NCBI GenBank assembly: GCA_015179125.1
Contig: WHVA01000345.1
Location: 1 to 64,000, forward strand
Direction: 5' to 3'
Length of the DNA stretch: 64,000 bases
From: Gautieria morchelliformis
Lineage: Eukaryota; Basidiomycota; Agaricomycetes; Gomphales; Gomphaceae
In this document: positions 1 to 50,907 of the stretch, piece by piece
Position numbering within the stretch: the first letter of the stretch is position 1
Layout: each line of letters begins with the position of its first letter
The notes under the pieces: model-generated
The model's database searches: none
What the model was told of the DNA's origin: nothing
What the model saw: only the letters and a program-made list of their open reading frames with translations
Translations under genes and position numbers: made by a program

Positions 1-2635
1 ACACTTCCTCGAGGGTGCTCTATGCCCTTTGAGATCTGGACAGACCACAAGAACCTCGAGTATTTCCGCACGTCTAAGAAGTGAACCGACGACAAGCACG
101 GTGGTCCCTACACCTGTCCCGGTTTGACTTCATGCTCCACCACCGCCCCGGCCGCACCATGGCAAGCCCGATGCCCTATCCTGCCATGCGGATCATGGAA
201 GCGGAAGTGGAGACAACGCGGATATGACACTGCTCCGCCCAAGTCTCTTTGCAATCCGTCCCCTAGAGGGAGTGACTGCAGTTGGGGTGGAAGCGGAAAT
301 GCTCCGAGACATCTGGAGGCAGTACCGGAATGGAGAGAAAGAGGAGTCGGTGGTGAAGATAGTGGAGGAACTTCGGAAAGGACACTCACGGTCTGTAACG
401 GGCAGCGAATGGTCGGAACGTGATGGACTGCTCCACTTCAGAGGCAAGGTCTATGTTCCAGGTGGTGCGGACCTCCGCCGCCGGCATCGTGTCCCAGCAC
501 CATGACACACGGGTCGCTGGGCATGCTGGCAGGTGGAAGACACTGGAATTAGTAGCTCGGAATTACTGGTGGCCTCAGATGTCCCGCTACATTGGACAGT
601 ACGTGAAGACATGCGACCTTTGTCTCCGAACCAAAGCGCAACGACATCCGCCCGTCGGAGAACTTGTTCCACTCCCGATTCCCGAATCCCGCTGGGACAC
701 CATCAGTGTCGACTTCATTGTTGAACTTCCAGAGTCTCATGGCTACGACGCGATCATGAACATCATGGACTCAGTAAGCAAGGTGTCCCACTTCATTACG
801 ACGCACACGACGATCACAGCCCTCGGAGCGGCCCGTCTGTTCCTTGCACATGTCTGGAAGTTGCATGGGCTCCCAAAGCAAGTTGTTTCCGACCGAGTTC
901 CGCAGTTTGTCGTGGAACTGACTCGGGAGCTCTACCGCCTGCTCGGCATAAAGCTGGCTACCACAACAGCGTACCATCCACAGGGTGACGGACAGACGGA
1001 ATGGGTCAATCAGGAGTTGGAGCAATATCTCCGCCTCTTTGTCAATGAGAGGCAGGATGACTGGGATGAGCTACTTCCACTGGCGGAATTCCAATACAAC
1101 AACCATGTACATTCCGCCACCCAACAGACTCCCTTCATGCTTGACTCCGGACGGCACCCGCGGATGGGCTTCGAACCACGCCAGTGTTGGGTGCATTTAT
1201 GCTCCTGCACCAAAATCAAGCCAAATAGATTCCACCATTCGTATTTCTTTTGATTTTGACTTGAAACCATGCTGACATTGATTCTATGATTTGTCGAATT
1301 TTCCTTTGATTTTTCGAAGCTGTATTTCTACTTCTTTTCATGTTCTGTCCAACCGACCCTTTGTGGGTGGTTGTGGACAAGTTTCCTTTTTGAGCTGCGG
1401 CTGTTCACCACCGTGGTACGTTCTATGGGCGCTTAGCATGGCACAAGGTGGTACCACGGGCGCTAAAGCGCCGGCTAGTAGTACATGCGCATGAGACACA
1501 TTTCCCTCCTCTCTCAGTGACAACTAAATTCACTGAGAGAGGCAAGTAAATTAGTCTTGTTTCCTTTCGATTTGTTGACCTAGAAATCCTTTAGTGAATT
1601 GATTTCTAGGTAGTGTATAATATATTTAGAGTGACAACTAAATTCACTGAGAGAGTGAATTGATTTCTAGTCTTCTTTTGAGCACCAAGTCCAAACCTAC
1701 TGCCTATAATTCCTGTCCTCTACAGCCAGGCTGAGTCCCGACTCGGGACGGTCAATGAGTTCCGAGACCGCATGGACTCCACCCTTTCAGAAGCCAAGTC
1801 GGCCCTTGCGAAGGCCAAGGATGACATGGCAAGGTACTACAACCAACGCCGGGTTCTGGCCCCGGAGTACCAAGTTGGAGACAAGGTATATCTAGATGCA
1901 AGTGACATCCGCACCACACGCCCTTTGCAGAAGCTTGCCCACCGCTACCTTGGGCCCTTCCCAGTGATGCGGAGGGTTGGACGGAATGCATACCGCCTCC
2001 GACTTCCGATGTCCATGTCCCGCCTCCACCCTGTCTTCAATGTGGTGAAGTTACTCCCTATGCCTGAGGACCCAATTCCAGGTCGGAAGGCTCGTCCGCC
2101 ACCTCCACCGGAAATTGTAGATGGGGAAGAGCACTATGTGGTGGAACGGATCCTGGGCAGCCAGTTTGTGCGAGGACGACTCCAATTCCTCGTGAAATGG
2201 GAAGGGTATGGGTATGAGGAGAATTCGTGGGTCCCGGAGCAAGATGTATCCGCTCTGGACAAACTCCGCGAGTTCTATAGGACACACCCTGGTGCCCCTC
2301 GCCTAATCCGCTCACTGGCATTTCAGTCACTCGTGTCCCGTGCTTCGAGGACGCAGCACGCTAGAGGGGGGGTGATGTCAGGGGACACCCTGTTTTCCAT
2401 TTCCAGTTCCGACTCCATTTCCGACTCCGGTTCCGGTTCCGATTCCATCTCCGCCTCCGCTTTCGGAAATGATTCCGCTTCTGGGAGAACTTCCACCAGT
2501 TCTGTTCACTTTTCCAGTTCCACTCCAATTTCCGACTTCCGCTCTCGGAACAGTGTCGGAAATCAAGCGACTCGCATAATAGGTGGCATCAAGGGTCGAT
2601 CAAGGGTCAGGGAGGTCAGGGGGATGCAGGGTTGA
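1..2635 (+). pseudogene. Remnant pol of family A gypsy: RNase H, integrase, chromodomain
   Basis: Visible parts in order: the end of RNase H (about 1-220), the integrase zinc-binding and catalytic core (about 480-1180, with the typical region around DGQTEWVNQELEQYL), a solo LTR insertion, the integrase C-terminal domain (about 1770-2040), and a chromodomain near 2110-2270 with the motif LVKWEGYGYEENSWVPEQ. In the intact family the polyprotein copies RNA into DNA and integrates it. This copy is a fossil and cannot be complete, because its start is outside the window and it carries an insertion. Confidence 0.85.
1185..1724 (+). repeat. Solo LTR (family C) inserted in gypsy integrase, TSD GCCAG
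   Basis: A 540-base block starts TGTTGGGTGCATTTATG and ends CTCTACA. It is flanked on both sides by the 5-base repeat GCCAG (1180-1184 and 1725-1729). The uninterrupted sister sequence near 54924 shows the empty site. TG...CA ends, a 5-base target duplication and no internal genes mark a solo LTR. A second member in the opposite orientation lies at 52598-53085. It contains an inverted repeat built on CTCTCAGTGA...TCACTGAGAGAG. Confidence 0.9.
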
Positions 2636-2848
2636 TGGCAGGTGCCAAGTGTTGTCCCTGGCTGCGCAGCGTAGTATAATACGGGCCCGCTGACATTGGG
2701 GGTCCTTAGACTTTTCTCTTTGGATTTCCCCTTGTCAGGTGAGAATCCCCTCTCTTGTATACTCTGTTCATTTATACAGACTTTGGATTTCCCCTTGTCA
2801 GTTGTGTGGTAGTGTGATCTCCACAACCAGCCAGGGTGGCGCCTTACA
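2376..2848 (+). repeat. 3' LTR of family A gypsy
   Basis: Begins TGTCAGGGGACACCC just after a purine-rich tract (AGAGGGGGGG) and ends CCTTACA. It matches both LTRs of the 49155-56060 element. The first half is a run of TTCCG/TTCCA-type repeats. A TATA-like AGTATAATACGGG lies in the middle. The LTR contains the intron-like 63-base segment (2739-2801) discussed in the findings. Confidence 0.88.
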
Positions 2849-3684
2849 ATGGCGTCCAGGCTGAGCGAACTCACTCCTCGCTATAGTGCTCTAAAGGATC
2901 CTCATTAGCGTCATACTTGAGGCCTTCCTGCAAGACACGTGAGAAACGCGTCCACATGTCATGGACGCATCCAAAGTGCCGTCCAGCCGTGGACAACGGG
3001 TCGGCTTTCTTCCTGGATGGTCATCGTGAGTGGAGTGTGTGAAGTTGAACTCGGCACTCACGGCCGCTTGCGCACGGCTCCTTGTTCTTCAAGCCGATTG
3101 CGCTTTGTGCCTGGTAGGGCCCGGTGGTCTTCATCAGTCTGACCTGGTGAAGATTCTTGGGATCTGTGTGGGTGTGGGCTAGGAGATCGAGAGGGAGAGG
3201 GGGAGCGCGAAGGTGAACTCAGGGCAAGGCTGAATGTCCCAGGGCGGGGCGGCGAAGAGTCCTGTGAGGTTAGAGGGAGAGTGATGGGTGGTAGGGGGAC
3301 GAACGCGGTGTGGGCGCACCGCGTGATTGGGGTTGGCGACGCGTCGGCTTTGGGGTCTTTTGCGGTGGGCGCTCTGGCTGGAGGCATGGCCTCGCTTGGA
3401 TTGCCCTGAGCTTGTATGGGAGCTGCGCGAGCTCCCGTAAAAGCTCGATGTGGAGGAACGGCTGGAATTTTCTCTGGAATGCGAGGGCATGATAGTGGGT
3501 GACGGGCAACCTGTGCATGCGTTCGCCGAGGGTTAAGTATTAAGGGCCGGGTCACGTGATGTGACCTGTCAACATACGTGTGACGGTGACTGGTTCCATA
3601 ACGCGTCTATAGTCACAGTCCGAGTCCATGGTCATCCTCCGTGCATTGGGAGAGCCTGCAAAGATTGACACACAGTTAGTTTTC
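2849..3684. other. Intergenic, no supported gene
   Basis: Between the gypsy LTR and the Trk exons. A minus-strand reading frame at 3179-3490 starts with a serine-rich stretch (MPSHSRENSSRSS) and overlaps another open frame (3058-3555) with SPSRSPSP-like repeats. The two frames compete over the same low-complexity sequence and neither shows a domain. One may be the N-terminal exon of a small host gene running leftwards, but this cannot be decided from the sequence. Confidence 0.3.
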
Positions 3685-4283
3685 CCCAGGGGCCGGTGAA
3701 GAGCGATTGATAAATCACTTTGCAGGTTCCCCATGCACCAGACATGGTTCCTTGTAGCATGTCTATTTATCTTCAGGTTCGGTTCCTTAAACTCTTTATA
3801 CACCATTGTCTGAATAGGCCATCTTAAGCATATTAGAATGGGTCAGGCTTTTAATTCTAGGTATATCTCTCCTCCACAGCGACGTGCATACATGATACGT
3901 TTAACCTTGGACATCGGGCTGAGCGTCACGGACACCCTTCCCATTGGCACACGAGTGGTTGCTGGTCTGTTCCAAGGCTTAGCAGCGCATGCGTCCGGAT
4001 TTGCTATCGTCCCTGTAGCAAGCTTGGCTCCGGCCATCCAGTGAGTCGGTTTTATTGTCACAATTGCCCTGAGAGGTCTGATCAGACGATGTCCAGGTTT
4101 CTCTACATGTCGATGATGTATATTGCGGTGAATAACTACTAGATAATCCAAGTCTGAATTCTGATTGCCTTGTGCAGGTCTACCCTGTCAGTGCGAGTGC
4201 TGATACTTATGCCTTGACCTGACGTGACTATCACAGGTCGCCATGAGCATCCGCACAACGAACGTGTGGGTGCCCCGGGATGA
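3685..4283 (+). pseudogene. Trk-type potassium transporter, partial, cut by a gypsy element
   Basis: Fungal Trk proteins are plasma-membrane K+ uptake channels/transporters. Recognisable pieces are FPMHQTWFL (about 3727), the exon from 3880 with the pore-like LFQGLAAHASGFAIV and a downstream LAPAIQ, then FLYMSMMYIA (from 4097), VYP (4178-4186) and VAMSIRTTNV (from 4237). These match the conserved C-terminal Trk block in order. Three introns with good splice ends separate them: 4041-4096, 4128-4177 and 4187-4236. The last exon runs directly into the gypsy LTR at 4284. Sequence upstream of 3880 is hard to parse and may already be decayed. The gene is almost certainly non-functional at this locus. 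Confidence 0.7.
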
Positions 4284-4966
4284 TGTTACGTATCGAGATT
4301 TCCACTAAGTCGGAACTGGAAAGGACAGCGGCTTCAACTTATAGGTTGCGCCCCCGATGAACTATCGTCCTAGGTATTTCGGAAATGAGCCGGAAGTCGG
4401 AAAGTACTGGACCAGAGGTTTGGTCGGAACTTGAGTCGGAACTGAGGCGGAAAGCGGAAGACCGAGAGACTGAGATCTTGCTAGACTCGCTGTGCTAAGA
4501 ACAGGAGATGGAGCGAAGGAAATCAAGTATCGAAGGTGATTATCTGATTGCAGAATAACAGACATACATGAGGGGGTTTTTATACAAAGCGCAGAGCAAC
4601 AAGTAATGGTGTTGTACTAAGCAAATTCCGGAGGAAGCGGAAGTCGAGTACAATGTGTGGGAACTAACTTATTGGGAACAATGGGACTACAAGGGGGGTT
4701 CAGGGTAAGGTAGAACAATGGCAAAGAACAAGGGGTCGGAAGAACATATCTGACAACGAACTACAAGGGTGACCGGATATATGGTTTTGATGGATGGCGA
4801 GGTGGGTCCGGTGGGTCCGAGTAATAGAGTCGAAAGAACAAGGGAAATGTACAAGGGGCGGAATGTCGGAAATGTCGGAGGGGCGGAACGTTGTGGCGGA
4901 ACTATTGGAGAGGCGGAATGTATGGCGGAACTGAGGGTCGGAAGTCGGAAATGAACGGTTGTAACA
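4284..4966 (-). repeat. 3' LTR of family B gypsy
   Basis: Starts TGTTACGTATCGAG and ends TTGTAACA as read on the plus strand, so the termini are inverted (TGTTAC/GTAACA). It is almost identical to 11623-12304. The LTR is packed with GTCGGAA/GCGGAA strings. A purine-rich tract suitable as a polypurine primer lies just outside its inner end (around 4967-4980, minus strand). The antisense gene begins 122 bases beyond this end. Confidence 0.95.
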
Positions 4967-5088
4967 GTATCTCCCTTCTAAGGTCGAGCCCCGCGAGACC
5001 ACAAGTCGGAATCACGTGACCTGTGAACAAACGCGTCGGAGTTTGAAATATAGGCGGGAAACAAGACGCGTCTTCTGTTTAGTCCATC

Positions 5089-6332
5089 ATGAGCACTCCA
5101 GTCGACTTCTCCAAAATGACCAGTGCTGAGATGAAAGCACACTTTGCTGACATGCTCGCGCAAAAGGAGTTGGCCGAAAAACGCGAGGCCGAGGAAGCGG
5201 CGCGGAAGGAGAAAGAGCGTCTGGAGGAGGAGCGCAAAGAGAAAGAGCGCGAGGAACAGGAGCGTCTGGAACGGGAGCGGAAAGAGAAGGAGGAGCGTGA
5301 CCGCAAACGTCGCGAGGAGGAATCGCGCGTCCGCGAAGAACAGCGGAAACGGGATGCGGCCCAAAAGGCTGCGGAAAACAAGGCCGTGGCGGAGAAAACG
5401 GAACAATCCCGGGTGAGTCGGAAAGGTTCTGAGCCTCATCCCGAGACTGACTGAAAAAAACTTGGTAGAAAATAATCGTCGAATCCGATTCCGAACCGGA
5501 GTCGGAAGACACGGCGGAAAACACGCCGTCTCCTGAGGGGAAGGGAAAACAACAGGAAGTAGTTCCTGTTGTGAACCTTGTGGCGGATCGGAAAAGGAGG
5601 GCGGACGAATTTCAACAGGCCAGGAAGAACAAGATGGCCCGCATTGTCGACCTCCGGGAGTTGGGGCCGGAGAATCCCGCGACCCGGAAACGGAAGACAA
5701 GGGACGGGGAAGAAGAAAAGGCACCCTGTGACACCTGCGAGGTAAAAGGACTAGAATGCGTCTGGTCAGAAAATCCGCGGGAAACCGCCTGTGAACGGTG
5801 CCGCGACAAGAAGAGGCGGTGCGTCGTGGACGGCTGTTCCGCGAGGGTGGAGCGGAAAAGGCGGAGAGTCGAGACCGAGGGGCCAGAAACCCCTAAGTCG
5901 AAACCAAGGTCGAGCGGGAAAAAGACGGCGGAAAGGGTTCCGGCGACCGGGAAGGCTGACATGTCGCCTCTGCTCGACATTGCAGAGTGTCTGAGGGGTA
6001 TCCGGAGATCCCAGCACGGGATTCGGAATACGCTCGAGGAGATGTCCGCGGTTCAACAGCAACAGCTGTTGAGCTTCCAGAACCAGATGACGGTTTTTGT
6101 CGACGGTTGTGGAGCAGATCAAGCGGGAGTTCCAGTGGCGGAACAATATGCTCCGGGAACGAATGGAGTGGCGGATGCAGGAGGAGGATGGTGTGGAAGC
6201 GGGTCCGAGTCAGGTGGTGGATACGAGGGTGGAGACAGAGTTGGTGAGTGTGCCGATGGGGCATGCGGAAGAGGGTGCGGAAGCGGAGAAGGAAGAGGCG
6301 GAGATGATGAGGGAGGAGTAGGGGTCGAATAA
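5089..6332 (+). CDS. Accessory coiled-coil / Zn2Cys6-like protein carried antisense inside the gypsy element
   Basis: A plus-strand gene between the 3' LTR and the 3' end of pol, convergent with pol. Exon 1 (5089-5412) encodes about 108 residues; residues about 25-100 are a highly charged K/E/R coiled coil. A 56-base intron (5413-5468, GTGAGT...TAG) joins in phase. Exon 2 begins with an acidic stretch, then a cysteine cluster with spacing C-X2-C-X6-C-X11-C-X2-C-X6-C at about residues 195-227. That is the spacing of fungal Zn(II)2Cys6 DNA-binding domains, with a basic CERCRDKKRRC half. Basic tracts and a second coiled-coil-like stretch (around LEEMSAVQQQQLLSFQ) follow. Total about 395 residues; the last third is less certain. 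A DNA- or chromatin-binding role is inference. No capsid, protease or RT motif is present. Confidence 0.65.
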
Positions 6333-6444
6333 CTTGTAACATAGTTTCTTGAAGTGTCGGAAATCATAATGGAAAATTAGTCGGAAATGTGTGTGACTTA
6401 AGAACCGTAAGAAATGGGGGTATCGGAAGTGGGGTCGGAATTGA

Positions 6445-9400
6445 CTAGGGCGCGGAAACGGGGCCAGGCTTATCAGGATATGACTTGTGAAAGTCAGAGA
6501 CGAGGTCAGAGGCGTGGTCAAGTTCCGTGGCGGAAATCCACGAAGTCTCTTCGTCAGTGTTTTCATAGCCTGCCCACTTGACTAGGTACTGGAGTTGGCA
6601 GCGGTATCTTCTGTCGAGCTTGGAGTTGAGAATTTCCGAAATCTCATATTCCGGTTCTCCGTCAATGACGACTGGCGGAGGCGGAGGTTGTTCTCGATTC
6701 GGAATTGTATTCGGAACTGCGGGTTCAAGCATGGAGACATGGAATACCGGATGTACTGCGCGCATATTGTCAGGAAGTCTGAGGGTGAAAGAACGACTGC
6801 CGGCCTTAGCGATGATCTCGTAAGGACCGAGGTATTTCTCAGAGAGTTTCTTCGAGGGGCGAGTGGTGCGGAAGTTTTCCGCTTTGACAAAGACTTTGTC
6901 GCCAATCTCGAATGCCGGTTGCGGAAGGCGTTTCCGATCGGCGGAAGTTTGGTATCTCTTCTGGGCAGCGGTAATGTTCTCTCGGAGGTGCTGGTGAAGG
7001 TCGTCAAGTTCCACAACGAAATCTCGGGCTCTTGCAGAGGCGAGGTCGCGTTCAGGGTGGATGGCGAGATTCGGGTGGTAGCCCTTGTTGGCATAAAAGG
7101 GTGAAATTCCGGTGGTAGCGGAAGGCGCGTTGTTGTAGGCAAATTCCGCGAGCGGAAGAAGGTCGGACCAATTGCTATGTTGGTAGTTGCAATAGACGCG
7201 GAGATACTGCTCAAGGGTCTGATTAGTACGTTCCGTCTGTCCGTCTCCTTCGGGGTGATAACCGGAGGTGAAGTGGAGTTTCATGTCGAGAGCCTTGCCG
7301 AGCGTGCGGAAAAAGGATGACACGAATTCGGATCCACGGTCGGAAGTGACATGGGAAGGTATTCCGTGCTTGGAAAAGACGTGGAGCACAAAGAGCTGTG
7401 CGAGCTGGGCGGAAGTTATGGTGTCGTAGGTCGGAATAAAGATGGACTGCTTTGTGAGGCGGTCAACGATCACTAGAATGGTATCATAGCCAGATGACTT
7501 AGGAAGTTTCTCAATGAAATCCATGGATATCGAATTCCACGGTTGTTCCGGGATCGGAAGTTGCTTCAGGAGGCCGTAGGGTTTGTGACGTTGAGGCTTG
7601 GCTCGCATACAGGTGGTGCATGACTTGCAGTAGTCTTGGACCATCGTGCGGAGGAGAGGCCAAGTATAGGTACGTCGGATTATGTCGAGGGTCTTGTTCT
7701 GGCCTTGGTGTCCTGAGAGCGGATGATCGTGGCTTTGCTGGAGCACGCGAAGTCGTAGATCGTTGGTGTCCGGAACGTAAATCCGGGACTTGTACCGGAG
7801 AAATCCGTCGGAATCGAGGGACCATCCAGGACTGGTGCGGTCATCGAGGTGGGCTGCGGAGGTGGGGTCGGAACGGAGTGCGGATTGGATGTCGGAATGG
7901 AGAGACTCGGTGTCCATAATAATTGAGGCGCGGAGTAGTGGAAACTGCAATGCTGTGGCACGCAGGGACGATGCCAGTTGCTCAGTGGAGAATACTGGGC
8001 GGAAATTGTGCGGATTAATGCTGGCATAGTCGCTACTTCCCTCTTTTGGGTAGACGTCCCAACGTCTAGTGAGCGCGTCGGGTTTTGCTCCGAGCTTTCC
8101 GGGGCGGAAACGGATCACCATGTTGAACTGTGAGAGGTATTCAGACCAGCGGACTTGACGGCGAGTCAAAATCTTAGTGGTTGCAAAATACTCAAGGTTC
8201 TTATGATCCGTTACAACGTCGACCGGATAAGTTGGACCTTCGAGGTAATGTCTCCAGATTTTGAAGGCTTCGAAAATCGCAAGTAGTTCCTTATCGTGGA
8301 CGTCGTAGTTGAGTTCCGGGGCGGAAAAGGTGCGGGAATGAAAGGCGATCGGATGAATTTCTCCGTCGTCGGGTGAAATGATGGAAAGAATGGCGGCTAG
8401 CGCGTAGTCAGAAGCGTCGGTTTCGAGTACAAGTTGGGCATCAGGAATCCAGAAACCGAGTATGGGAGCCGTGGTGAAGGCCGATTTGAGAGCTTCAAAT
8501 GCGGAACGGCATTCCGGTGTGAAATTCCATGGGGCACCCTTCCTGGTGAGACGCGTGAGCGGAACAGTAATGTCGGAAAAATTATAAATGAAACGCCGGT
8601 AAAAGTTGGCGAAGCCAAGGAAAGACTGCACATCCTTAACACGTCGGGGTTCCGGCCATTCTTGAATTGCCTTGACCTTGTCCTCTGCCATGGTAAGACC
8701 TGTTGGAGAGAGGATGTAGCCGAGGTATTCGACCGTGTCGCGATGCCATTCGCATTTCTCTGCTTTTGCGTAGAGATGGTGTTTGCGTAGGCGGCGGAGT
8801 ACTTCGCGGACATGTTCCCGATGTTTTTCCGGTGTGTCGGAATAGATGAGGATGTCGTCAATGTAGACTAGAACGCATACGTCGAGGAGGTCGGAAAATA
8901 CGTCGTTCATGAATCGCTGAAAAGCGGCGGGAGCGTTGGTTAGACCAAAAGGCATGACAGTCCACTCAAAGGCACCGTAGCGGGTGCGGAAGGTGGTTTT
9001 CCACTCGTCACCTTCCCGGATGCGGACAAGGTGATAAGCGTGCCGGAGGTCAATTTTGGTGTAGATCTTCGCCCTGCGGGGAGTGTCGAGTAAGTCGGAA
9101 ATGCGCGGAAGCGGATATTTGTCCTTTTTAGTGAGGGCATTGAGTCCGCGGAAATCGACGCAGAGGCGGAGAGATCCATCCTTCTTCTTGACGAAAAGGA
9201 CCGGAGCGCCGTGCGGAGACAGCGAAGGGCGGATAAAGCCCATGTTGAGATGTTCATCGACGAACTCTCGGAGAGTCAGGAGTTCACTTTGCGAAAGGGA
9301 GTAGATCGGTCCAAGGGGCGGAGATGCTCCTTCTTCCAATTCTATCTTCAAGTCGTAAGGTCGATGTTCAGCAGGTTTGTCGGCTTTGGCCTTATTGAAC

Positions 9401-9993
9401 ACGTCCGGGAAGTCACGATATTCTTCCGGAACTGAGCTCATGTCGACCGGGGCGGAAGTCGAGGCGGAACGAGCCTTGACTGAAGCCGAATCGGAGAGGT
9501 GAAGCTGGAAAACGGTCGTATCATCTTGCCGTTGCAATACGCGGAAAGCGGTGGCGGAAACGAGCGCAATTCGAGGGGCTTCGAGGGGCGGAGGTGCTAA
9601 AGCGGGACCGGAGTGCGGAACTGAATCCACGAGCGGAGTTGCAGAAGAGGCCTGAGCCATCTTTGCAGAAGACGTCGGAATAGATGGAAGTTGATCCGGG
9701 GTACGGAACTGTATTTGACCCAATGCCCAGTTAATCGACGGATTATATCGGGTGAGCCAATTGTGTCCTAGTACAACGGAACAGCTAGCATCTAGCGGAG
9801 TAATGTAAAACGTAACTTCATGGTTGTCCCCAGTAGCGAAACGGATAGACAGATCCACAACTTGGGAAATTCCCGTGTTGGAAGACCCGTCGAAAAGGCG
9901 GAGCGGAATAGTCGGAATGTTGCGGGTCGGAAGTTTATGTTTCAAAACAAAGTCGGAATCGAGGAAACAATGAGTCGAACCGGAGTCGACCAA
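6445..9993 (-). CDS. Pol polyprotein of family B gypsy (PR-RT-RH-IN-chromodomain)
   Basis: One open frame of 1,182 residues. In order: an aspartic protease with DSG at residues 3-5, reverse transcriptase with the YIDD box at about 377-380 and FVKKKDGSLRLCVDFRGLN upstream, RNase H (about 500-620), an integrase with an HHCC finger (about 745-795) and a core with DRGSEF and GYHPEGDGQTER, then a C-terminal chromodomain (about 1090-1170, LVKWAGYENTDEETSW). The protease must start upstream of the first Met, so pol is expected to be expressed as a continuation of gag by the read-through or frameshifting usual for the group. The frame looks whole. Confidence 0.95.
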   Translation of the reverse strand: MVDSGSTHCFLDSDFVLKHKLPTRNIPTIPLRLFDGSSNTGISQVVDLSIRFATGDNHEVTFYITPLDASCSVVLGHNWLTRYNPSINWALGQIQFRTPDQLPSIPTSSAKMAQASSATPLVDSVPHSGPALAPPPLEAPRIALVSATAFRVLQRQDDTTVFQLHLSDSASVKARSASTSAPVDMSSVPEEYRDFPDVFNKAKADKPAEHRPYDLKIELEEGASPPLGPIYSLSQSELLTLREFVDEHLNMGFIRPSLSPHGAPVLFVKKKDGSLRLCVDFRGLNALTKKDKYPLPRISDLLDTPRRAKIYTKIDLRHAYHLVRIREGDEWKTTFRTRYGAFEWTVMPFGLTNAPAAFQRFMNDVFSDLLDVCVLVYIDDILIYSDTPEKHREHVREVLRRLRKHHLYAKAEKCEWHRDTVEYLGYILSPTGLTMAEDKVKAIQEWPEPRRVKDVQSFLGFANFYRRFIYNFSDITVPLTRLTRKGAPWNFTPECRSAFEALKSAFTTAPILGFWIPDAQLVLETDASDYALAAILSIISPDDGEIHPIAFHSRTFSAPELNYDVHDKELLAIFEAFKIWRHYLEGPTYPVDVVTDHKNLEYFATTKILTRRQVRWSEYLSQFNMVIRFRPGKLGAKPDALTRRWDVYPKEGSSDYASINPHNFRPVFSTEQLASSLRATALQFPLLRASIIMDTESLHSDIQSALRSDPTSAAHLDDRTSPGWSLDSDGFLRYKSRIYVPDTNDLRLRVLQQSHDHPLSGHQGQNKTLDIIRRTYTWPLLRTMVQDYCKSCTTCMRAKPQRHKPYGLLKQLPIPEQPWNSISMDFIEKLPKSSGYDTILVIVDRLTKQSIFIPTYDTITSAQLAQLFVLHVFSKHGIPSHVTSDRGSEFVSSFFRTLGKALDMKLHFTSGYHPEGDGQTERTNQTLEQYLRVYCNYQHSNWSDLLPLAEFAYNNAPSATTGISPFYANKGYHPNLAIHPERDLASARARDFVVELDDLHQHLRENITAAQKRYQTSADRKRLPQPAFEIGDKVFVKAENFRTTRPSKKLSEKYLGPYEIIAKAGSRSFTLRLPDNMRAVHPVFHVSMLEPAVPNTIPNREQPPPPPVVIDGEPEYEISEILNSKLDRRYRCQLQYLVKWAGYENTDEETSWISATELDHASDLVSDFHKSYPDKPGPVSAP

Positions 9994-10148
9994 TGCTGTA
10001 AACGGGGGTGCGGAAATGGTGTCGGAAGTGAGCGGAACAGAGAGAGAGTCGGAGGACGAAAGAGCGGATGCGTTGAGTTTAACCTCGTTTGTTGCACAAA
10101 TGGGGTCAACACAGCCCTCAGCTCGTGCGGAGGCCGGAGGACTGCTGA

Positions 10149-11588
10149 CTATTTTTTTGAATCCGCAGCGGGAATCGCTTCGGATTTCTCTTCCGTCTTT
10201 GCTGTGCGGCCCTTGGCCTTAGCAGCGGAGGCGGAAGCGCGAGTGCAGTCGCGAGCGACGTGACCTCCTTTGCCGCAGAAGAGGCAAAGGTTGTTGTCCA
10301 TGCGACGCTGGCGTTCTACAGGGGTTAGTTTTCCGTCCTTCCCAAGTTTGTCGGAAAGATCCGGGGTACTCTTCCGGGCGTTGGTGTTAGAACCAGAGGC
10401 CTGGTTGTTCCGAGGGGTGTTGTTGTTGTTCCGGTTGCCGGAGTTGGATCCGGAACTGTTGTTGTTGTTGTTTCCGGAGTTGGTGTTTCCGGAATTGGTC
10501 TTCTTCTTGTCTTTATCAGACTTCTTGTCGGAAGACTTGTCGTTCTTGCTCTGGGCGGAGGTTTCACGAGCAATCTCGGAGTGTCTTTCCCAGTAGCGCG
10601 AATCGATGGATTGGGCGAGGTTGCGGAGGTCGGTAAGGGTGGCGGGTTTTCCGACGCGGGCAATTTCATCCTTGATGCGGGATGGCAAGCCCATGTAAAA
10701 CTGGCGTCGGAGTGCGGCTTCTCCCCATTGGACTCGAGGAGCGAGCTGCTGAAACGTGACGATATATTTAGCTATCTTATGAGTGTCTTTCATGCGAAGC
10801 TTATCGAGTTCGTTCTCCGCATCGGCTTCCATATCAAATGGTCCGAAGTTGCTGCGGAGTTCGGAAATGAAATTGGGGTAATCGTCGGCCCAGTCGACAA
10901 GAGCGAACGGATCCATGAGGGCGGGTTCGAAATAGTCGAGCGCCGTGCCTCGGAGATAGGAAAGGGCATAATTGACCTTTCGTTCGTCGTCGGGAAAGGC
11001 GTCGGGACGATCACGGAAATTGAGTTGAAGCTGAACCAGAAATGGCTGGAGCTTCTTGGGGTCGGAACCGTCGAACTGATCTGGTTCGCGGACCTTTGTC
11101 TTGGGGCGTGGTGGTGCTTGGGCCGGGCGCTGGAGTTGTCCGGCTAGCATGGCGATGGCTTGTGCAAGATCCGGAACTGGCGCGGGCGGAACTGGGTTGG
11201 CGGGAATCTGAGGTGGAATTGGAGGTGGAGGACCGCCGGGAGGACCGCCTGGCGGACCGCCGGGTGGGCCGCCATGAGGGCCGCCTGGAGGGCCGCCTGG
11301 AGGTGGTCCTGGTGGAGGTGGTGGTGGTGGAGCTGGGCGTCGGTATGACGCTGCTGTTTGTTCGCCGCTGCTACTCGTCGAATTCCCGTCGTAGTCGGGA
11401 TTGTCGTCGGGATTAGCGTCGGGAACTTCTTCGAAACGTTGCGGAAAAGCATCGGAAAGCTCATCGTCGGCACGAGAGCTGTTGGAGGGTTCCGCGTGCC
11501 TTGGTGCTGCGGATCTAAGACTGCCAAAATAAGAGAGAGCTTCGACAGCTCCTGCTCGAGCTGAAGTAGCTGTGGTACGAGGAGGCAT
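10149..11588 (-). CDS. Gag of family B gypsy
   Basis: A 479-residue frame starting 34 bases inside the 5' LTR boundary. Residues about 85-140 are very rich in Pro and Gly. A Ty3-type gag core follows (around FDGSDPKKLQPFLVQLQLNF), then an Asn/Ser-rich linker and one CCHC zinc knuckle (CLFCGKGGHVARDC) near residue 435. The tail is Ala/Lys-rich. It would form the particle shell around the element RNA. The frame looks whole and belongs with the pol just downstream. Confidence 0.93.
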   Translation of the reverse strand: MPPRTTATSARAGAVEALSYFGSLRSAAPRHAEPSNSSRADDELSDAFPQRFEEVPDANPDDNPDYDGNSTSSSGEQTAASYRRPAPPPPPPPGPPPGGPPGGPHGGPPGGPPGGPPGGPPPPIPPQIPANPVPPAPVPDLAQAIAMLAGQLQRPAQAPPRPKTKVREPDQFDGSDPKKLQPFLVQLQLNFRDRPDAFPDDERKVNYALSYLRGTALDYFEPALMDPFALVDWADDYPNFISELRSNFGPFDMEADAENELDKLRMKDTHKIAKYIVTFQQLAPRVQWGEAALRRQFYMGLPSRIKDEIARVGKPATLTDLRNLAQSIDSRYWERHSEIARETSAQSKNDKSSDKKSDKDKKKTNSGNTNSGNNNNNSSGSNSGNRNNNNTPRNNQASGSNTNARKSTPDLSDKLGKDGKLTPVERQRRMDNNLCLFCGKGGHVARDCTRASASAAKAKGRTAKTEEKSEAIPAADSKK

Positions 11589-11622
11589 AGTGATAGTTAT
11601 CGGGTGGGAATCAGATAATACT

Positions 11623-12304
11623 GTTACGTATCGAGATTTCCACTAAGTCGGAACTGGAAAGGACAGCGGCTTCAACTTATAGGTTGCGCCCCCGATGAAC
11701 TATCGTCCTAGGTATTTCGGAAATGAGCCGGAAGTCGGAAAGTACTGGACCAGAGGTTTGGTCGGAACTTGAGTCGGAACTGAGGCGGAAAGCGGAAGAC
11801 CGAGAGACTGAGATCTTGCTAGACTCGCTGTGCTAAGAACAGGAGATGGAGCGAAGGAAATCAAGTATCGAAGGTGATTATCTGATTGCAGAATAACAGA
11901 CATACATGAGGGGGTTTTTATACAAAGCGCAGAGCAACAAGTAATGGTGTTGTACTAAGCAAATTCCGGAGGAAGCGGAAGTCGAGTACAATGTGTGGGA
12001 ACTAACTTATTGGGAACAATGGGACTACAAGGGGGGTTCAGGGTAAGGTAGAACAATGGCAAAGAACAAGGTGTCGGAAGAACATATCTGACAACGAACT
12101 ACAAGGGTGACCGGATATATGGTTTTGATGGATGGCGAGGTGGGTCCGGTGGGTCCGAGTAATAGAGTCGAAAGAACAAGGGAAATGTACAAGGGGCGGA
12201 ATGTCGGAAATGTCGGAGGGGCGGAACGTTGTGGCGGAACTATTGGAGAGGCGGAATGTATGGCGGAACTGAGGGTCGGAAGTCGGAAATGAACGGTTGT
12301 AACA
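11623..12304 (-). repeat. 5' LTR of family B gypsy
   Basis: 682 bases, TGTTACG...GTAACA, essentially the same as 4284-4966. In the element's own sense it carries the promoter and lies 34 bases before the gag start. The target repeat GATGA follows at 12305-12309. I could not match a standard tRNA primer site in the short gap between LTR and gag. Confidence 0.95.
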
Positions 12305-12482
12305 GATGACCCAAGTACTGTGCACTGGGAGTGCGCGCCCGTCCTGAGGGAGTCCAAAACAGCCGAGAAGATTTACCTTCGGGCACAAACACCAGAAATT
12401 CAAGGGGTACGCTCAAGTGACTGACTCCGACTGGTCTCCGCAGTATACCCTCGACATCTTCCGTGGCATGTTGCAAGGAGGG
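12305..12482 (+). other. Right flank of the gypsy insertion, probable continuation of the Trk locus
   Basis: After the GATGA target repeat the plus strand stays open for about 36 codons, beginning PSTVHWECAP. I cannot match it to a known Trk segment, so it may be a divergent intracellular loop, an unspliced stretch or unrelated DNA. No other feature is visible before the hairpin at 12483. Confidence 0.3.
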
Positions 12483-13529: not shown

Positions 13530-13655
13530 CCTACTACTACCACCAAAAAACGAAAATCTTCATTATTACGCTTTATCACAAACTGTCGGCGGCTAGTGTA
13601 GCTAATAGCAACGCTAAAAACAGACAGTGTGCTTCTGTAGAACGAAGCAAACAAA

Positions 13656-15384
13656 ATGACCTCGCCGTCGAGCACGGAGGGTCAACCATCGGGGACGACA
13701 CACCTGGGGAGAACAAGAGTGGGGACAGCGCAGCAGGCGGAGCAAGCAAAAACAAGAGGTGAGCTAATAGACAACGCGAGCTCATCAGTGCGCAGCAGAG
13801 AACAGGACAGGAACCAGTACGTGGCAAAAGAAGACCCGATATCCAGGAAAGCTTGAGCTACGCATTGCTAAGCATGGCCCAAAGCACAACGCTGAAGGCG
13901 CTGAAGGAAGGAGCGAGGGCAGTAGCGATCTTGATGGTAGATGCGTCAGCGAAGAGCATGGGGGAGCAGGTGATGAAGTACGTGGAAAAGAGACTGGAGC
14001 CGGTTATGCGCGCAAGGCGGAAGAAACGATGGATACACTCAGACAGGCGGCATACGACACGGTGAGAGCCGCCGATCTAGCAACAGACGTAGTAGAGAAC
14101 GGAGCACGAAGCAGAGGAGGGTCGGGGCTGGCCCCGGAGTTGACGTACACCATGGCATTGAAAGGCACGGTACCGCTCGCACATCCCAATATGCTGGCCA
14201 GAGCGAGGGCGAGGAACCGACAGATCCTGATCGACAAGGACCCCAACACAGAGGCAAACCCATTCGGAGAGCTGACCGAGCAGGAGCTCGTAGCAAAAGC
14301 AAACGAGGCAGTCGAGTATATGGATGAGCTCGAAGAAGGGGAGGAGCCGAGATTTGTGGGGGTCAAAAAGCTAGTCAACGGGGGAATCGTCTTCGACTTG
14401 GAAACGCAGGAGGCAGCGCGCGTTATCCTGGCACACAAGGAGGACTTCCTATTCAAATTCAGTGCTGCCGCAGTAGTCAAAGAGAGAGCCGTGTCGGTGT
14501 TAGTGGAATACGTACCCGTCAGTCACGCTCCGGATGCCCTGGCAGAGCAGGCCAGGATCAAGCAAGACTCCGGCATACCCGAGGGAACCTTGGTGACAAC
14601 GCGATGGATAAAGCCCATACAGAAACGCAGTCCGGGACAGCGAACAGCGCACCTCATCGCGCGTTTCAGCACCACAGCAGGGGCAAACGTGACGATTAGG
14701 GACGGATTGGTTATAGCAGGGAAACGCACGTGGGCTAGAAGGATGCGCAGAGAGCCTCGCAGGTGTCTAAAATGCCAAAAATACGCTAGGCACCTCGCCG
14801 CGGTGTGCGAAGAAAGGGAGACGTGCGGCACATGCGTGGGAGACCATAGAACGGCCACCTGTGAGGAAACAAACCCAGACAAGTATAAATGTGTCAATTG
14901 CGATATGACGGGACACGCCTCGTGGGACAGGACGTGCCCGAAATTCATTAGTGCAAGTGAGAGGATCGAAAGGGGAGATCCGGAGGGCACGTACAAATTC
15001 TTCCCCGACGAAAACCCTTGGACATGGGAACAGCAGATCGCCCAAGGCAATACCAACGCAGGAGCGGCCCAAGCGGAAGTCGTGGAAGAGCGCGGTGGAC
15101 AAGTAATGGCGATGCAGAGGATGCAACAAGCGACGCAAGAGGAAGGACAGGCGAGGCAGAGACCGCAGGAGGCGGTAGGCCAGACACAGCAAAAAAGGGC
15201 AACGACAAACCCACGAGTTGGACACAGGGACGAGGGATGGCAGCGGCAGCCGGTGAGAAGCAGGTCTAGGCCAGCCACAAGGCCAGGATCAAGGCAAACT
15301 ACGATAAACGAGCACTTCCAAAGCGGCGCAGGCGGAGACAGGAGTGAATCGAGGGTAGACAAAAACAGACACGGCGCAGAATGA
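13656..15384 (+). pseudogene. LINE ORF1 (gag-like, zinc-knuckle protein)
   Basis: The main frame is 14029-15384 (451 residues); N-terminal pieces at 13656-13856 and 13853-14065 lie in two other frames, so at least two frameshifts affect the first 130 codons. Residues about 240-305 of the main frame hold three cysteine clusters (CLKCQKYARHLAAVC, CGTCVGDHRTATC, CVNCDMTGHASWDRTC), the arrangement seen in Tad-type ORF1 proteins that bind the element RNA. The C-terminus is Gln/Arg-rich. The stop codon overlaps the ORF2 start as ATGA (15381-15384), suggesting stop-restart translation. Confidence 0.85.
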
Positions 15385-18300
15385 ATGACAACTCAGAGCC
15401 ACCAACAACTTTAAGGATAAGACAGCAGAACGTAAATAAGTCTTTGCACGCCACTAACGACCTTCTAGGAAAATGTCCGCCCAGCAAATATGATATCATA
15501 GCAGTACAAGAACCATACATCGATCATCTAGGCAATGCGCAAGCAACCCACCAATGGTACACGATATACCCGAAGACGCATTACAGAGACAAGAGAAGCG
15601 GACCTGGTCAATGATACTGGTCAACAGGAGAATAAAGACAGACTCATGGGAAGCGATGGACGTGGGCCACCCAGATGTGACAGGGATTAAGATAAGAACT
15701 CAGTCCGGTGTTGTGCTAATTTTCAATTATTATTGCGATTGCGCACACTCAGAGAGCATACAACGTACTAATGCATATATACAGACCCGATCTAGACACG
15801 AGCGGGAGGATGAGCAATATGTGGGTATGATATGGCTCGGGGATTTCAACCGGCACCATCCACAATGGGATGAGGCGCAAACGCGCATTTTTTTACCCGA
15901 GGAAACCTGGACGCTGCACAGATACTCTTAGAAGCGACTATAGAGAGAGACCTTCTAATGGCCTTACCGAAAGACCTGCCAACGCTAATCGCGCAGTCCA
16001 CGGGCAATCACACAAGAACTGACAATGTATTCATGTCAGCTGCGCTCCTTGACGCCATCCTACAGTGCACCACAGTCCCCGAGGACCAACCAGCGTGTAG
16101 TGATCACTTCCCCGTCGACACAGTACTAGACCTAGCCACAGCAGCAATGCAAGATGCCCCGAAACACAATTATCAGATGGTAGACTGGGCAGAGTACAAC
16201 AAAACACTGGAGGAGAACCTGAGGGAAGTTAGGACAGAGGCGCCAACCAGCGAGCAGGAGTTCGAGAGGATGCTAGAAGGGATGAACGAAGCGATCATTC
16301 AGACAACGAGCGAGCTGGTTCCTGTGGCCAAGCCCTCTCCCTACACGAAGCGGTGGTGGAGTAAGGAGCTAACGGCGTTAAGAAAGAGCACTAGGCAGAA
16401 AGCAAGGCAAGCCTACAACCGCCGCAACGATCCAACGGATGAGGCGCACGCGAGATATAAGAAGGCCAGGAATGACTATGCGGCGGCCATACAGAAGTCA
16501 AAGCAGGAGCACTGGGAGGAGTTTCTGGCCACTGTAGACAAGCGCACGGTGTGGACGGCGAATCGTTTTGCCACTGGAGATTCCACCGACGGTGGCAAAG
16601 CGAGGGTGCCCACACTCAGGGTCAGGCGAGAAGATGGATCTGAATGGGTGGCGAACACGAACAGCGAGAAGTCGAAAATGCTCTGGCAGACGTTCTTCCC
16701 GCCATTGCAGAGAGACTCAACGCATGCACCGAGTGAGCAGGGACACCCACCGCCAGCCTTCAAATATGAGGAGATAACGGAAGAACAAATTAGAAGGGCA
16801 GTCAGACGCACCAACTCCTTCAAAGCCCCAGGCGCGAATGGGATACCGAACGTGGTACTCAAGCAATGCATTCAAACCCTGATGCCTTATATCAGACAGC
16901 TTTTCAGAGCGACGTTATACCACGAGAATATACGGAGTGGATCCGGCGGAAGGTGGAAGGACGTGTAGCGGTTCTGAAATTCGACGACTACAGCGCCCCT
17001 CCAACAGCAATTTTAAGGGGGATGGACCAAGGATGTCCGCTGTCGGCCATAGCATATCAATTCTACAACTCAGGACTGCTCGACGTCGTAAAGCGAGAGA
17101 AAGGGGAGGACGCAGTCGCTTTTGTTGATGACACGACGATCCTGGCAGAAGGGGCAGACTTGAATGAGGCATTCAACAAACTAAATGACATCGTTCACAG
17201 AGAAGGCGGAGTGCTTGACTGGGCAGCAGAACATGACTGTCAGTTTGCCCTGGATAAGTTCGGGTTGATGGGCTTCACCAGAAAGCGAGACAAAGACCTA
17301 ACGGGAGTGAATAAAACCAAGCCGGTAGCCAGGCCCACCATAACGATCAGCGGTCAGGAAATTGCCCTGACTGAAGTGCACAAATATCTGGGGATAATGT
17401 TAGACCAGGAGCTCAGGTTCAAATACCAGGTCAATTATGCGCTAAAGAAAGGGACGAAGATAATGGATCAGTATCGCAGGCTTGCTAAGACAGCGAAGGG
17501 GATTTCAGCTAAGCATATGAGGCAGTTTTACATATCGGTCACAATACCGAGGGTCTTGTACGCGGCTGACGTATTCTTAGTGCCAGAGACCAAGCACACC
17601 AAGGGGACAAAAGGTTTCATCAATAAACTAGCTAGGGTTCAAAGGCAAGCCGCGTTAGCGATCACAGGGGCAATGAGAACCACAGCGACCGATGCAATTG
17701 ATGCACATGCGAACCTATTGCCATTCCAACTACTAGTATCAAAAATAGTGCATCGCGCGGCAGTCAGACTAACGTGCTTGCCCACACAGCACCCTCTGAC
17801 AAAGCAGGTGAGAAGATCAGCCAAAAGATACGTCAAAAGGCATAGGTCCCCGCTGCATGAAATGATGCACGCGTTCAAGCTCCAGCCAGAGCACATGGAA
17901 ACGATAGAGGTCGTAAGGCACGGACCCAAATGGACACCGGCTTTCGAGATCAACATCCCGAGGGACAAGGATGAGGCAGTGGAACGAGAGGCGAGGGACA
18001 CGGCAGAGGTCAGCGTGTACACGGATGGATCAATGATAGATGGAGGGGTTGGAGCCACGGCTGTCATGTACCGTAGAGGCACAGCAACAAGAGTGGTCAG
18101 GAAGTACATGGGGATGGCAGAGGCGCACACGGTTTTCGAGGCAGAGCTTCTAGGTGCGGCAATAGGGGCGATGATGATCAGGGAAGAGGGCATCGGGACG
18201 TGCATGTTGGGCCTGGACAGCCAGGTCGCCATACAGACCACCAGAGAGGAGAGGGCCATTTCGGGGCAGTACTTGGTTAACGCACTCCACGAGCAAATGG

Positions 18301-18947
18301 AGGCCATGAGAAAGGAAGGGAACGGGAGGACAACAGTGATCATGAGGTGGATACCAGGGCATGAGGGAGTGAAGGGCAACGAACGGGCAGACAGTGAGGC
18401 GAGGAGAGCAGCGAAGGGCAAGTCTACCAATGAGCGGAACAAGCTGCCAGTATGCAGAGGCAGAATGCCAGTCAGCAGGTCAGCGGAGATACAGAGATAC
18501 CACAAAACCTTGAAAGCGCAAGATAAGGACGCCTTCGCGAGATCACCAAGGGCCCGCTACATGCACAGGATCGATCCGTCGATGCCATCCACGGCGTATA
18601 TGAAGCTCACCAGCGGATTGGCACGAAGGCACAGCTCGCTTCTGATCCAACTGAGAACGGGCCTTGCACCGCTAGCGAAACACCTGTTCAAAATAGGCAA
18701 GATCGACTCACCGACGTGTGCGGCATGCCATAAGGACGACGAAACAGTACACCACTTCCTCATTCAGTGTCCAGCCTACGAAGAACAACGGAAGCAGCTG
18801 CGAAGAAAGTTGAAGCGGGGGGCGAGGACGGTCAGCACGCTGTTAACCAAGCCAAAAGGGATGGCACCGTTGTTTCAATACGTGAACGAGACGGGAAGGT
18901 TCAGACAAGCCTTTGGGGACCTAGTGCTGCCAGACAAAGGAGTCTAG
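15381..18947 (+). pseudogene. LINE ORF2: endonuclease, reverse transcriptase, RNase H
   Basis: Starts at the ATGA overlap with ORF1. The apurinic-type endonuclease covers about 15381-16130 (RQQNVNKS, VQEPY, WLGDFNRHHPQWDE, SDHFPVDT), with frame changes near 15606 and 15890. RT begins with FKAPGANGIPNVVLKQC (16818). Near 16928 the sequence jumps from LFRATLYHENI straight to a segment preceding LKFDDYSAPP, so roughly 100 codons including catalytic RT motif A are missing; the later FVDDT box (about 17122) is present. RNase H (about 18010-18420) keeps YTDGS, an E, LDSQVA and NERAD. A C-terminal CAACHKDDETVHHFLIQC knuckle ends the protein at a good stop. The deletion alone would abolish activity. 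Confidence 0.88.
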
Positions 18948-19195
18948 AGGAAGAAATCAGACAGTGGAACAGCCCGCGCGCAATGCGCGGAAGCAACTCC
19001 CTCGCTCACACACAAGCACGGACAAGCTCAGGACATGGTCCATCGAGCGCATGCGGAGATAGATACAAGGGTACGGATAGAAAATAGCATGTTGACGGGG
19101 TTTCTGTATGCTACGTCTTACATAGGGCACGGCCCCAAAAGACGAAAATTGGATTAAAAAAAATTTTTTTTAAATTTAAAAATTTAAAAATTTAA

Positions 19196-19210
19196 AAAAT
19201 CCTGCTCACG
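19196..19210. repeat. LINE target-site duplication, right copy
   Basis: AAAATCCTGCTCACG, identical to 13515-13529. Confidence 0.95.
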
Positions 19211-29483: not shown

Positions 29484-30010
29484 TTGAAGGGTCGAATCCA
29501 GAGAAGAGCTTCGAAGCGAGGGAAGAGTCGAAGCTACAGAAGAGTGGATGCCAGAGAAGCGAGAGAGGAGTCGAAGCAAGAGAAGAGTCGAAGCGAGAGA
29601 AGAGTCGAAGCAAGAGAAGGGTTGCGAAGCGAGGGAAGAGTCGAAGCGAGAGAAGCGTGGATGTCAGAGAAGAGTCGAAGCCAGAGAAGAGTGGATCCCA
29701 GAGAAGCGAGAGAACAGTCGAAGCGAGAGAACAGTCGAAGCAAGAGAAGGGTCTAAGCGAGAGAACAGTCGAATCCAGAGAAGAGTTGCGAAGCGAGGGA
29801 AGAGTCGAAGCGAGAGAAGAGTGGATGTCAGAGAAGAGTCGAAGCCAGAGAAGAGTGGATCCCAGAGAAGCGAGAGAAGAGTCGAAGCGAGAGAAGAGTC
29901 GAAGCAAGAGAAGAGTCGAAGCCAGAGAACAGTCAAAGCCAGAGAAGAGTAGATGCCAGAGAAGCGAGAGAAGAGTCGAACCAAGGGAAGAGTCGAAGCG
30001 AGAGAAGAGC
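29484..30010 (-). repeat. 17-base minisatellite upstream of gene A, left arm
   Basis: About 30 degenerate copies of GAGAAGAGTCGAAGCGA (TCGCTTCGACTCTTCTC in the gene A sense), sometimes broken by a variant containing GGATGCCAGAGAAGC. It fills the interval between the TATA box of cassette b and the gene A start. Stop codons are nearly absent, so long frames appear on both strands; they are not evidence of genes. Confidence 0.92.
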
Positions 30011-36240: not shown

Positions 36241-36293
36241 CGGAATGATGCGCTATAATGGAATTGCAGATCATACGTCCTATATATTATGCA

Positions 36294-49149: not shown

Positions 49150-49154
49150 GGTTC

Positions 49155-50804: not shown

Positions 50805-50907
50805 CCACAGAGGAGAAACTCGAGCTCCTTCCAGAGTTCCTCGCACTCGTGGACATAAGTGGAGTGCCCACTGCGGAAGGAATTTCCGAAAATGCGGAAC
50901 ATGGCAC

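What the first reader, a model, noticed from the sequence alone, without database searches (positions are those of the whole stretch)
5089..6332. A spliced, antisense Zn2Cys6-like gene riding inside a young Ty3/gypsy element
Between pol and the 3' LTR of a whole-looking chromovirus lies a gene on the opposite strand with a KER coiled coil and a C-X2-C-X6-C-X11-C-X2-C-X6-C cluster. Gypsy elements normally need only gag and pol. A DNA-binding-type passenger could bind the LTR or local chromatin, silence or protect the element, or guide targeting. I cannot say whether this has been described before.
Basis: partly seen in the sequence, partly recalled or inferred. Interest (0 to 1): 0.82.

Follow-up and report, generated by a model that had tools for sequence, protein, structure and literature searches.

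The report
Jumping gene's own backwards DNA-binding gene
A probably fungal jumping gene carries, on its opposite strand, a spliced gene for a probable DNA-binding protein that natural selection has kept intact, and the jumping gene is packed with the kind of short DNA word such proteins usually bind, so it may carry both a self-recognition protein and its targets.

Summary
A young Ty3/gypsy chromovirus (4284-12304, minus strand; LTRs with 1 mismatch in 683 nt, GATGA duplication) carries a two-exon gene on the opposite strand between pol and the 3' LTR. It is a standing part of the family: 48 of 51 related pol copies checked by position have it beside them. The intron (51-58 nt) drifts through all three phases while the exons mostly keep frame, and dN/dS is 0.06-0.17 for the 21 copies with dS above 0.2. 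The cysteine cluster is conserved. The window copy itself has a frameshifted C-terminus. Gene types with dS above 1 sit on pols with dS about 0.13-0.22, so the gene region is exchanged by recombination. New here: the element is packed with CGGAA (116 against 19 expected), even at synonymous sites of gag and pol; CGG is the core that Gal4-type zinc clusters read. I read the product as a trans-acting factor binding its own element, most likely against silencing. Binding, transcription and direction of effect are untested, and a second chromovirus without the gene also has the motif. Antisense extra genes are known in plants and Botrytis; this is a new variant.

The parts
4279..4283 (.). left target-site duplication GATGA
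   Evidence: identical to 12305-12309
4284..4966 (-). 3' LTR of the chromovirus; 18 CGGAA words
   Evidence: 683 nt, 1 mismatch to the other LTR; motif count against 1.65 expected
4967..5088 (+). short spacer between 3' LTR and gene; candidate promoter/5' leader of the antisense gene (inferred)
   Evidence: 97, 93 and 89% identical in L051-L053, whose gene segments up to 6089 are 74-88% identical
5089..5412 (+). exon 1, 108 aa, E/K/R-rich
   Evidence: length a multiple of 3 in 26 of 29 copies
5413..5468 (+). intron, 56 nt, GTGAGT...CTGAC...TAG
   Evidence: lengths 51-58 in the 29 of 33 copies where exon-1 start, donor and acceptor could be placed, spread over all three phases
5469..6332 (+). 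exon 2 as read in the window; frame departs from all 32 sibling copies after about 6090 (sibling frame corresponds to 6091-6321)
5727..5837 (+). Zn2Cys6-like cluster CX2CX6CX10CX2CX6CX4C
6445..10218 (-). pol: protease, RT, RNase H, integrase, chromodomain
   Evidence: Pfam
10152..11588 (-). gag open frame from first ATG
   Evidence: named by position and not searched against families
11622..12304 (-). 5' LTR
12305..12309 (.). right target-site duplication GATGA
4284..12304 (.). element-wide CGGAA array: 116 CGGAA on the plus strand, 30 on the minus strand
   Evidence: expected 19.4 and 9.4 from dinucleotides

Best explanation
The gene is a standing third gene of a chromovirus family, probably fungal. 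It encodes a trans-acting, probably nuclear, zinc-cluster DNA-binding protein. An antisense transcript starting in or next to the 3' LTR is spliced (inferred; the antisense orientation lets the intron survive passage through the element's RNA). The zinc cluster recognises CGG-centred words (inferred from the domain type), and C-terminal helices pair the protein (inferred). The protein then coats the CGGAA array in the LTRs and body of its own family (inferred). The most likely outcome is to keep the element's chromatin transcribable against host silencing, in the manner of the Arabidopsis VANC proteins (inferred, weaker). Shown here: anatomy, the genomic signature of splicing, family-wide presence, purifying selection, recombinational exchange of gene types, and motif arrays beyond what composition or codon use explains.
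For: Place: the 20 gene-bearing loci fetched at 9.3 kb (chosen because they carry the gene) all have this family's pol in the window's relative orientation. From the pol side: 104 of 150 pol copies have exon 1 or 2 on the opposite strand within 4 kb, none on the same strand; 48 of 51 on contigs C1-C317 when the N-terminal pattern is added; that pattern occurs 248 times in the genome, control 0. Splicing: intron phases 12/9/8, exon 1 in phase in 26 of 29, exon 2 joined in frame in 28 of 29, both exons wholly open up to the cluster in 23 of 29. Selection: dN/dS 0.06-0.17 for the 21 comparisons at dS above 0.2, 0.11-0.17 for the deepest types; pooled pN/pS 0.20 against 0.14 for the pol end. Cysteines conserved; Zn_clus matched by 16 of 19 at E up to 0.1, best 4.4e-4. 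Motif: LTR 18 vs 1.65 expected; element 116 vs 19.4, 43.7 kb of the rest 33 vs 43.3; synonymous-codon shuffles of pol give TTCCG 46 vs 15.0 (z 9.4) and CGGAA 17 vs 5.8 (z 5.5), ranks 1 and 3 of 1024 words; gag 12 vs 3.4 and 9 vs 2.9; genome-wide triple clusters 25,870 against 1,515 for the reversed word and 2,516 for a permuted word. LTR motif sites diverge less than others (5.6 vs 7.65%; CpGs 8.9 vs 15.8%, 16 copies). Same-orientation dense arrays are also what VANC21 recognises (PMC5735166, passages).
Against: A second chromovirus family (about 40% pol identity) lacks the gene by position (2 of its 150 best pol copies lie near a gene hit, 1 in the right orientation) yet is also enriched for the motif (43 vs 7.8 and 33 vs 6.4). 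The reader of the motif may thus be a host factor, or the protein may act on both. The gene's own exons show uneven synonymous-level enrichment (CGGAA z 1.2 in exon 2 and 2.1 in exon 1; TTCCG 3 vs 0.5 in exon 2). The Pfam match in the window copy is below the curated cut-off (19 vs 21 bits) and, judging from its coordinates, lays the first half of the cluster on the second half of the model. A genome search with PF00172 found 17 places, none of them this gene by my reading. No PDB relative of the cluster. Single-sequence fold models are of low confidence (pLDDT 60-61). In 2 of 16 copies the LTR motif sites diverge more than the rest. No expression data. VANC motifs lie mainly in non-coding DNA; these also fill coding DNA.
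Confidence: 0.5

Rival explanations
1. Self-limiting regulator: the protein binds the LTR array and represses sense transcription, controlling copy number, as antisense HBZ does for HTLV-1 (HBZ's repressor role recalled; its nuclear location seen in a passage of PMC11963269).
For: Same anatomy: antisense, intron-bearing, just inside the 3' LTR border. The most one-sided motif array is in the LTR (18 to 1). Several diverged gene types sit on near-identical pols, as expected if escape from another element's repressor pays.
Against: Motifs fill gag and pol too, which a promoter repressor does not need. Another family has also accumulated the motif, which is hard to explain if being bound is harmful to it.
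Confidence: 0.2
2. The motif is read by a host factor (activator, insulator or silencing-boundary protein), and the antisense protein does something else, for example integration targeting, cDNA import or RNA handling.
For: Motif enrichment is shared with a gene-less family. The domain match is weak. The protein is highly charged, as some nucleic-acid chaperones are (recalled).
Against: The cluster has the spacing of a fungal domain class known for CGG recognition (PMC5559640 passages) and sits in the element most enriched for CGGAA of those compared. No enrichment in the non-LTR element or the rest of the window.
Confidence: 0.25
3. Decaying captured host gene without function for the element.
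For: Captured genes in retroelements are known (abstract of PMC7264820; passage); the window copy has a frameshifted C-terminus.
Against: dN/dS well below 1 across types, mostly frame-keeping exons with a drifting intron, presence beside 48 of 51 pol copies.
Confidence: 0.03

Closest known systems
[quoted passage not shown]
   Same: Position, orientation, presence in most copies; Retand TRP28 is predicted to bind DNA and a regulatory role is proposed (PMC7264820 passages; PMC11963269 passages and discussion section).
   Different: Other protein family, other hosts; Retand is a non-chromovirus lineage (abstract). The word 'intron' does not occur in the main text of either paper.
brtn, antisense gene of Boty-like gypsy elements, Botrytis cinerea (Zhao et al. 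2011, Virology 417:248)
   Same: Fungal gypsy element whose gag-pol has a chromodomain, with an additional antisense gene (title in reference lists; gag-pol domains in a passage of PMC4227169).
   Different: I saw only the title and mentions in other papers, not the paper or the sequence, so relatedness and exact position were not tested.
VANC anti-silencing proteins of Arabidopsis VANDAL transposons
   Same: Element-encoded protein plus dense same-orientation arrays of a short motif in the element (PMC5735166 passages; PMC10398659 abstract).
   Different: Not LTR elements (DNA transposons, recalled); motif highly enriched in its own family, rare in other elements and mainly non-coding. Binding in vivo and in vitro and loss of methylation are shown there, not here.
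HBZ of HTLV-1
   Same: Antisense, nuclear regulator of a retroelement (PMC11963269 passage); antisense promoter in the 3' LTR (PMC7264820 passage); spliced (recalled).
   Different: bZIP, not a zinc cluster (recalled); retrovirus of people.
Fungal Zn2Cys6 transcription factors (Gal4, AlcR, Pho7)
   Same: Cysteine spacing; such proteins typically read CGG triplets, and Pho7 binds TCG(G/C)(A/T)xxTTxAA (PMC5559640 passages).
   Different: Below Pfam cut-off; the very basic loop lies in the second half of the cluster (its usual place in the first half is recalled); encoded by a retroelement.
Transposon-encoded TET/JBP dioxygenases in fungi
   Same: Fungal transposons carrying a likely anti-silencing gene (PMC12730594 abstract).
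   Different: Enzyme, DNA transposons, no motif array mentioned in the abstract.

Membership tests
Ty3/gypsy chromovirus | LTR pair, short target duplication, protease-RT-RNase H-integrase order with C-terminal chromodomain | tested here: met
Fungal Zn2Cys6 domain (PF00172) | C-X2-C-X6-C-X5-12-C-X2-C-X6-8-C (spacing recalled) | tested here: met
   pattern present once in the window; in 19 aligned copies five of its six cysteines are invariant and one is at least 90% conserved
Fungal Zn2Cys6 domain (PF00172) | score above Pfam's gathering cut-off over the whole domain | tested here: not met
   19 against 21 bits, residues 73-102 only; 16 of 19 copies match at E up to 0.1, best 4.4e-4; not among the 17 genome places. 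Hence called Zn2Cys6-like
Fungal Zn2Cys6 domain (PF00172) | binuclear zinc fold and CGG binding | tested here: inconclusive
   low-confidence single-sequence models; binding not testable with these tools
[quoted passage not shown]
VANC-type anti-silencing system | dense same-orientation motif array in the element | tested here: met
   on contig C1, 52 of the 100 listed clusters lie in three gene-bearing element regions, all 52 on the gene's strand (tallied by eye)
VANC-type anti-silencing system | motif confined to the encoding family | tested here: not met
   family B without the gene is enriched too
VANC-type anti-silencing system | protein binds the motif and removes methylation | not testable with these tools
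   needs experiment
HBZ-like antisense regulator | antisense spliced transcript from the 3' LTR | not testable with these tools
   genomic splice signature only; no RNA data
brtn of Boty elements | sequence homology to BRTN | not tested
   BRTN sequence not available to me

The most novel reading that the evidence does not exclude
An LTR retrotransposon of a fungus has evolved a self-recognition system: its own zinc-cluster protein reads a CGGAA word that selection has written throughout the element, including synonymous sites of gag and pol, to shield it from host silencing. Old, diverged versions of the protein are swapped among otherwise nearly identical elements, and a second chromovirus family exploits the same word without paying for the gene. 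This would be a fungal, RNA-element counterpart of the plant VANC system.
Probability: 0.35. Interest if true: 0.86.

Novelty: new variant of a known kind. Interest (0 to 1): 0.64.

Why it matters
The roles of antisense extra genes in LTR retrotransposons are still undetermined according to the plant papers I saw. Here the gene has a recognisable DNA-binding-type module, a splicing and selection signature, hundreds of copies in one genome, and a candidate target word enriched about six-fold over expectation, so one binding assay can decide whether the element recognises itself. It would also show that an element's coding sequence can be shaped at synonymous sites by the need to be bound.

Tried and rejected
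Rejected: chance ORF (the cluster pattern never occurs in 20 random windows); positive selection as the cause of the gene's divergence (dN/dS is low and synonymous divergence is high, so exchange of old types fits better); RNA-only motif (both orientations are enriched at synonymous sites of pol and gag); general genome composition (43.7 kb of the rest of the window and the non-LTR element are not enriched) or codon use.

Led nowhere: relatives in viral contigs and genome contigs (31 and 44 stretches matched a peptide pattern, none confirmed; one scan of each; these are viral and prokaryote collections, so absence says little); solved structures (only a weak match of the C-terminal helices to V-ATPase subunit D, E 0.058); single-sequence folding (low confidence, so no fold search was made); PF00172 over the genome (17 matches, none at a gene place listed or 41 by my reading). 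The first pairing count of 86 of 150 was too low because each search scores only its best 150 places; the exon-1 and pattern searches raised it. A first gag translation was in the wrong frame and was redone.

Results against my reading: 3 of 51 pol copies show no gene, and 46 of 150 stay unmatched if only searches are used; only 43 of the 100 listed gene starts lie beside one of the 150 listed pol copies, the pol list being capped at 150 of 4791 candidates. Family B carries the motif. The gene's exons are unevenly enriched. Two of 16 copies have less conserved motif sites. Six of 29 copies do not have both exons wholly open up to the cluster. The 20 and 33 loci compared were chosen by their match to the gene, so their having it proves nothing; only the pol-side counts do.

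Rows dropped: 4 of 33 copies for want of a recognisable exon-1 start (L017, L019, L025, L030), copies under 4% LTR divergence or with under 150 aligned bases, copies with under 81 aligned codons (3 for pol) and, for the pooled figures, under 120. Twelve of the 33 copies, the window included, are near-identical to each other, so counts over copies are not independent.

Full report
What is there. The element spans 4284-12304 on the minus strand: two 683-nt LTRs with one mismatch and a GATGA duplication on both sides, a gag frame 10152-11588, and a pol frame 6445-10218 with protease, RT, RNase H, integrase and chromodomain. Between pol and the 3' LTR, on the plus strand, lies a two-exon gene: exon 1 5089-5412, intron 5413-5468, exon 2 from 5469. 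The window's exon-2 frame runs to 6332, but after about 6090 it departs from the frame of all 32 other copies examined, so the window copy has a frameshifted C-terminus. I describe this and mend nothing.

Family-wide presence. The genome is 122 Mb and unnamed; 17 matches over the cut-off to the fungal Zn_clus model fit a fungus, but species and class were not established. The gene's exon 2 has at least 150 matches (150 scored of 640 candidates); together with later searches I count 217 distinct gene places. Twenty loci chosen by their gene were fetched at 9.3 kb: in 20 of 20 this family's pol lies in the window's relative orientation, in 19 of 20 an LTR lies on the gene's side, and in 13 of 20 both LTRs fall inside the stretch. 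Seen from pol, which is the fair test, 104 of the 150 best pol copies (of 4791 candidates) have exon 1 or exon 2 on the opposite strand within 4 kb, and none has it on the same strand. An exact N-terminal pattern occurs 248 times, control 0. With it, 48 of 51 pol copies on contigs C1-C317, the range its listing covers, have the gene. Of the 150 best pol copies of a second chromovirus family, 2 lie near a gene hit, 1 of them in the element arrangement.

It looks spliced and is selected. In the 29 of 33 copies where exon-1 start, donor and acceptor could be placed, intron lengths are 51-58 nt and fall in all three phases (12, 9, 8), while exon 1 keeps phase in 26 and exon 2 joins in frame in 28; 23 have both exons wholly open up to the cluster. 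That is what selection on a spliced product leaves behind. Window against the other 32 copies: dN/dS is 0.06-0.17 in all 21 comparisons with dS above 0.2 (0.11-0.17 for the three deepest types); the 11 near-identical copies have too few changes to say (0 to 0.45). Pooled over all pairs, pN/pS is 0.20 for the gene and 0.14 for the pol end; the median dN/dS of pairs with dS above 0.05 is 0.15 (455 pairs) and 0.10 (307 pairs). In 19 aligned copies cysteines 87, 90, 97, 108, 111 and 123 are invariant and 118 is at least 90% conserved.

The gene is exchanged. Among pol copies 98-100% identical to the window's, the adjacent gene, where its identity was listed, ranges from 79 to 100%. L051-L053 have gene dS of 1.06-1.35 against pol-end dS of 0.13-0.22, the latter from only 93-107 codons. 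L027-L029 are 96-98% like the window from the LTR end to just before the cluster, 80-88% from the cluster to the spacer before pol, then 97-98% again in pol. So old gene types recombine onto a young backbone; this is not fast protein change.

The motif. CGGAA occurs about 14 times per kb on the gene's strand of the element and about 0.8 per kb in 43.7 kb of the rest of the window. Element: 116 against 19.4 expected, TTCCG 30 against 9.4. Rest: 33 against 43.3 and 30 against 37.1. Non-LTR element: 8 against 9.6 and 0 against 3.0. LTR: 18 against 1.65. Shuffling synonymous codons within pol, which keeps protein and codon usage, gives TTCCG 15.0 against 46 observed and CGGAA 5.8 against 17; they rank first and third of all 1024 five-letter words. 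Gag shows the same: 12 against 3.4 and 9 against 2.9. Genome-wide, three CGGAA within short distances occur 25,870 times (overlapping clusters counted), against 1,515 for the reversed word and 2,516 for a permuted word. In 16 LTR copies at least 4% diverged, motif positions differ at 71 of 1258 and other positions at 619 of 8089; CpGs inside motifs at 45 of 504 and other CpGs at 96 of 608 (copies are related, so these are not independent, and 2 of 16 go the other way). Against a private code: family B, without the gene by position, has 43 against 7.8 and 33 against 6.4, and 4 of its 5 frames tested pass z 2.7 for at least one orientation at synonymous sites.

How it most likely works. Shown: the gene, its genomic splicing signature, its selection, its exchange, and the motif beyond composition and codon use. 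Established knowledge: Zn2Cys6 proteins typically read CGG triplets, often as homodimers joined by a downstream helix, some perhaps as monomers (PMC5559640 passages). Inferred: antisense transcription from the 3' LTR side, zinc binding, dimerisation, and binding of CGGAA. That arrays fill the body, that they share one orientation as VANC21 targets do (PMC5735166 passages), and that a second family has gathered the word, favour a benefit to the bound element, hence protection or activation over repression. I put self-binding at about one half and anti-silencing as its purpose at somewhat over one third.

Known and new. Antisense genes at this place are known in plant elements, with a DNA-binding role suspected for TRP28; an antisense gene is also known in the Boty elements of Botrytis (original paper not seen). 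I saw no description of a zinc-cluster gene there or of such motif arrays in the listings of the library searched (open-licence papers only). I therefore call it a new variant of a known kind.

Noticed in passing
window 1-2870 and about 48900-56000: Two copies of another chromovirus family (about 40% pol identity to the first), with no antisense gene seen but with CGGAA/TTCCG enrichment on both strands; the pol of the first copy is interrupted around 1188-1680.
   Followed up: partly
window about 13600-20500: Non-LTR (LINE-like) element with a CCHC-like stretch near 14.7-15.0 kb; no CGGAA enrichment. Named by eye from the sequence, not searched.
   Followed up: no
window 29486-30009, 35767-36242, 43770-43930: Diverged minisatellites with units of about 17-19 bases related to GAAGAGTCGAAGC or its complement.
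   Followed up: no
G000:C139:94518-95162: One gene copy lies in an open frame of 1298 aa, far longer than any other of the 150 listed; cause unknown.
   Followed up: no
window element, e.g. 4425-4441, 4914-4930, 6700-6716: CGGAA pairs spaced 12 bases apart in direct orientation: 18 in the window against 0.15 expected, partly a consequence of motif density.
   Followed up: partly
L008 and L030 exon-2 tails: Copies whose C-terminus carries the ends of two gene types in tandem, as if left by recombination or template switching.
   Followed up: no
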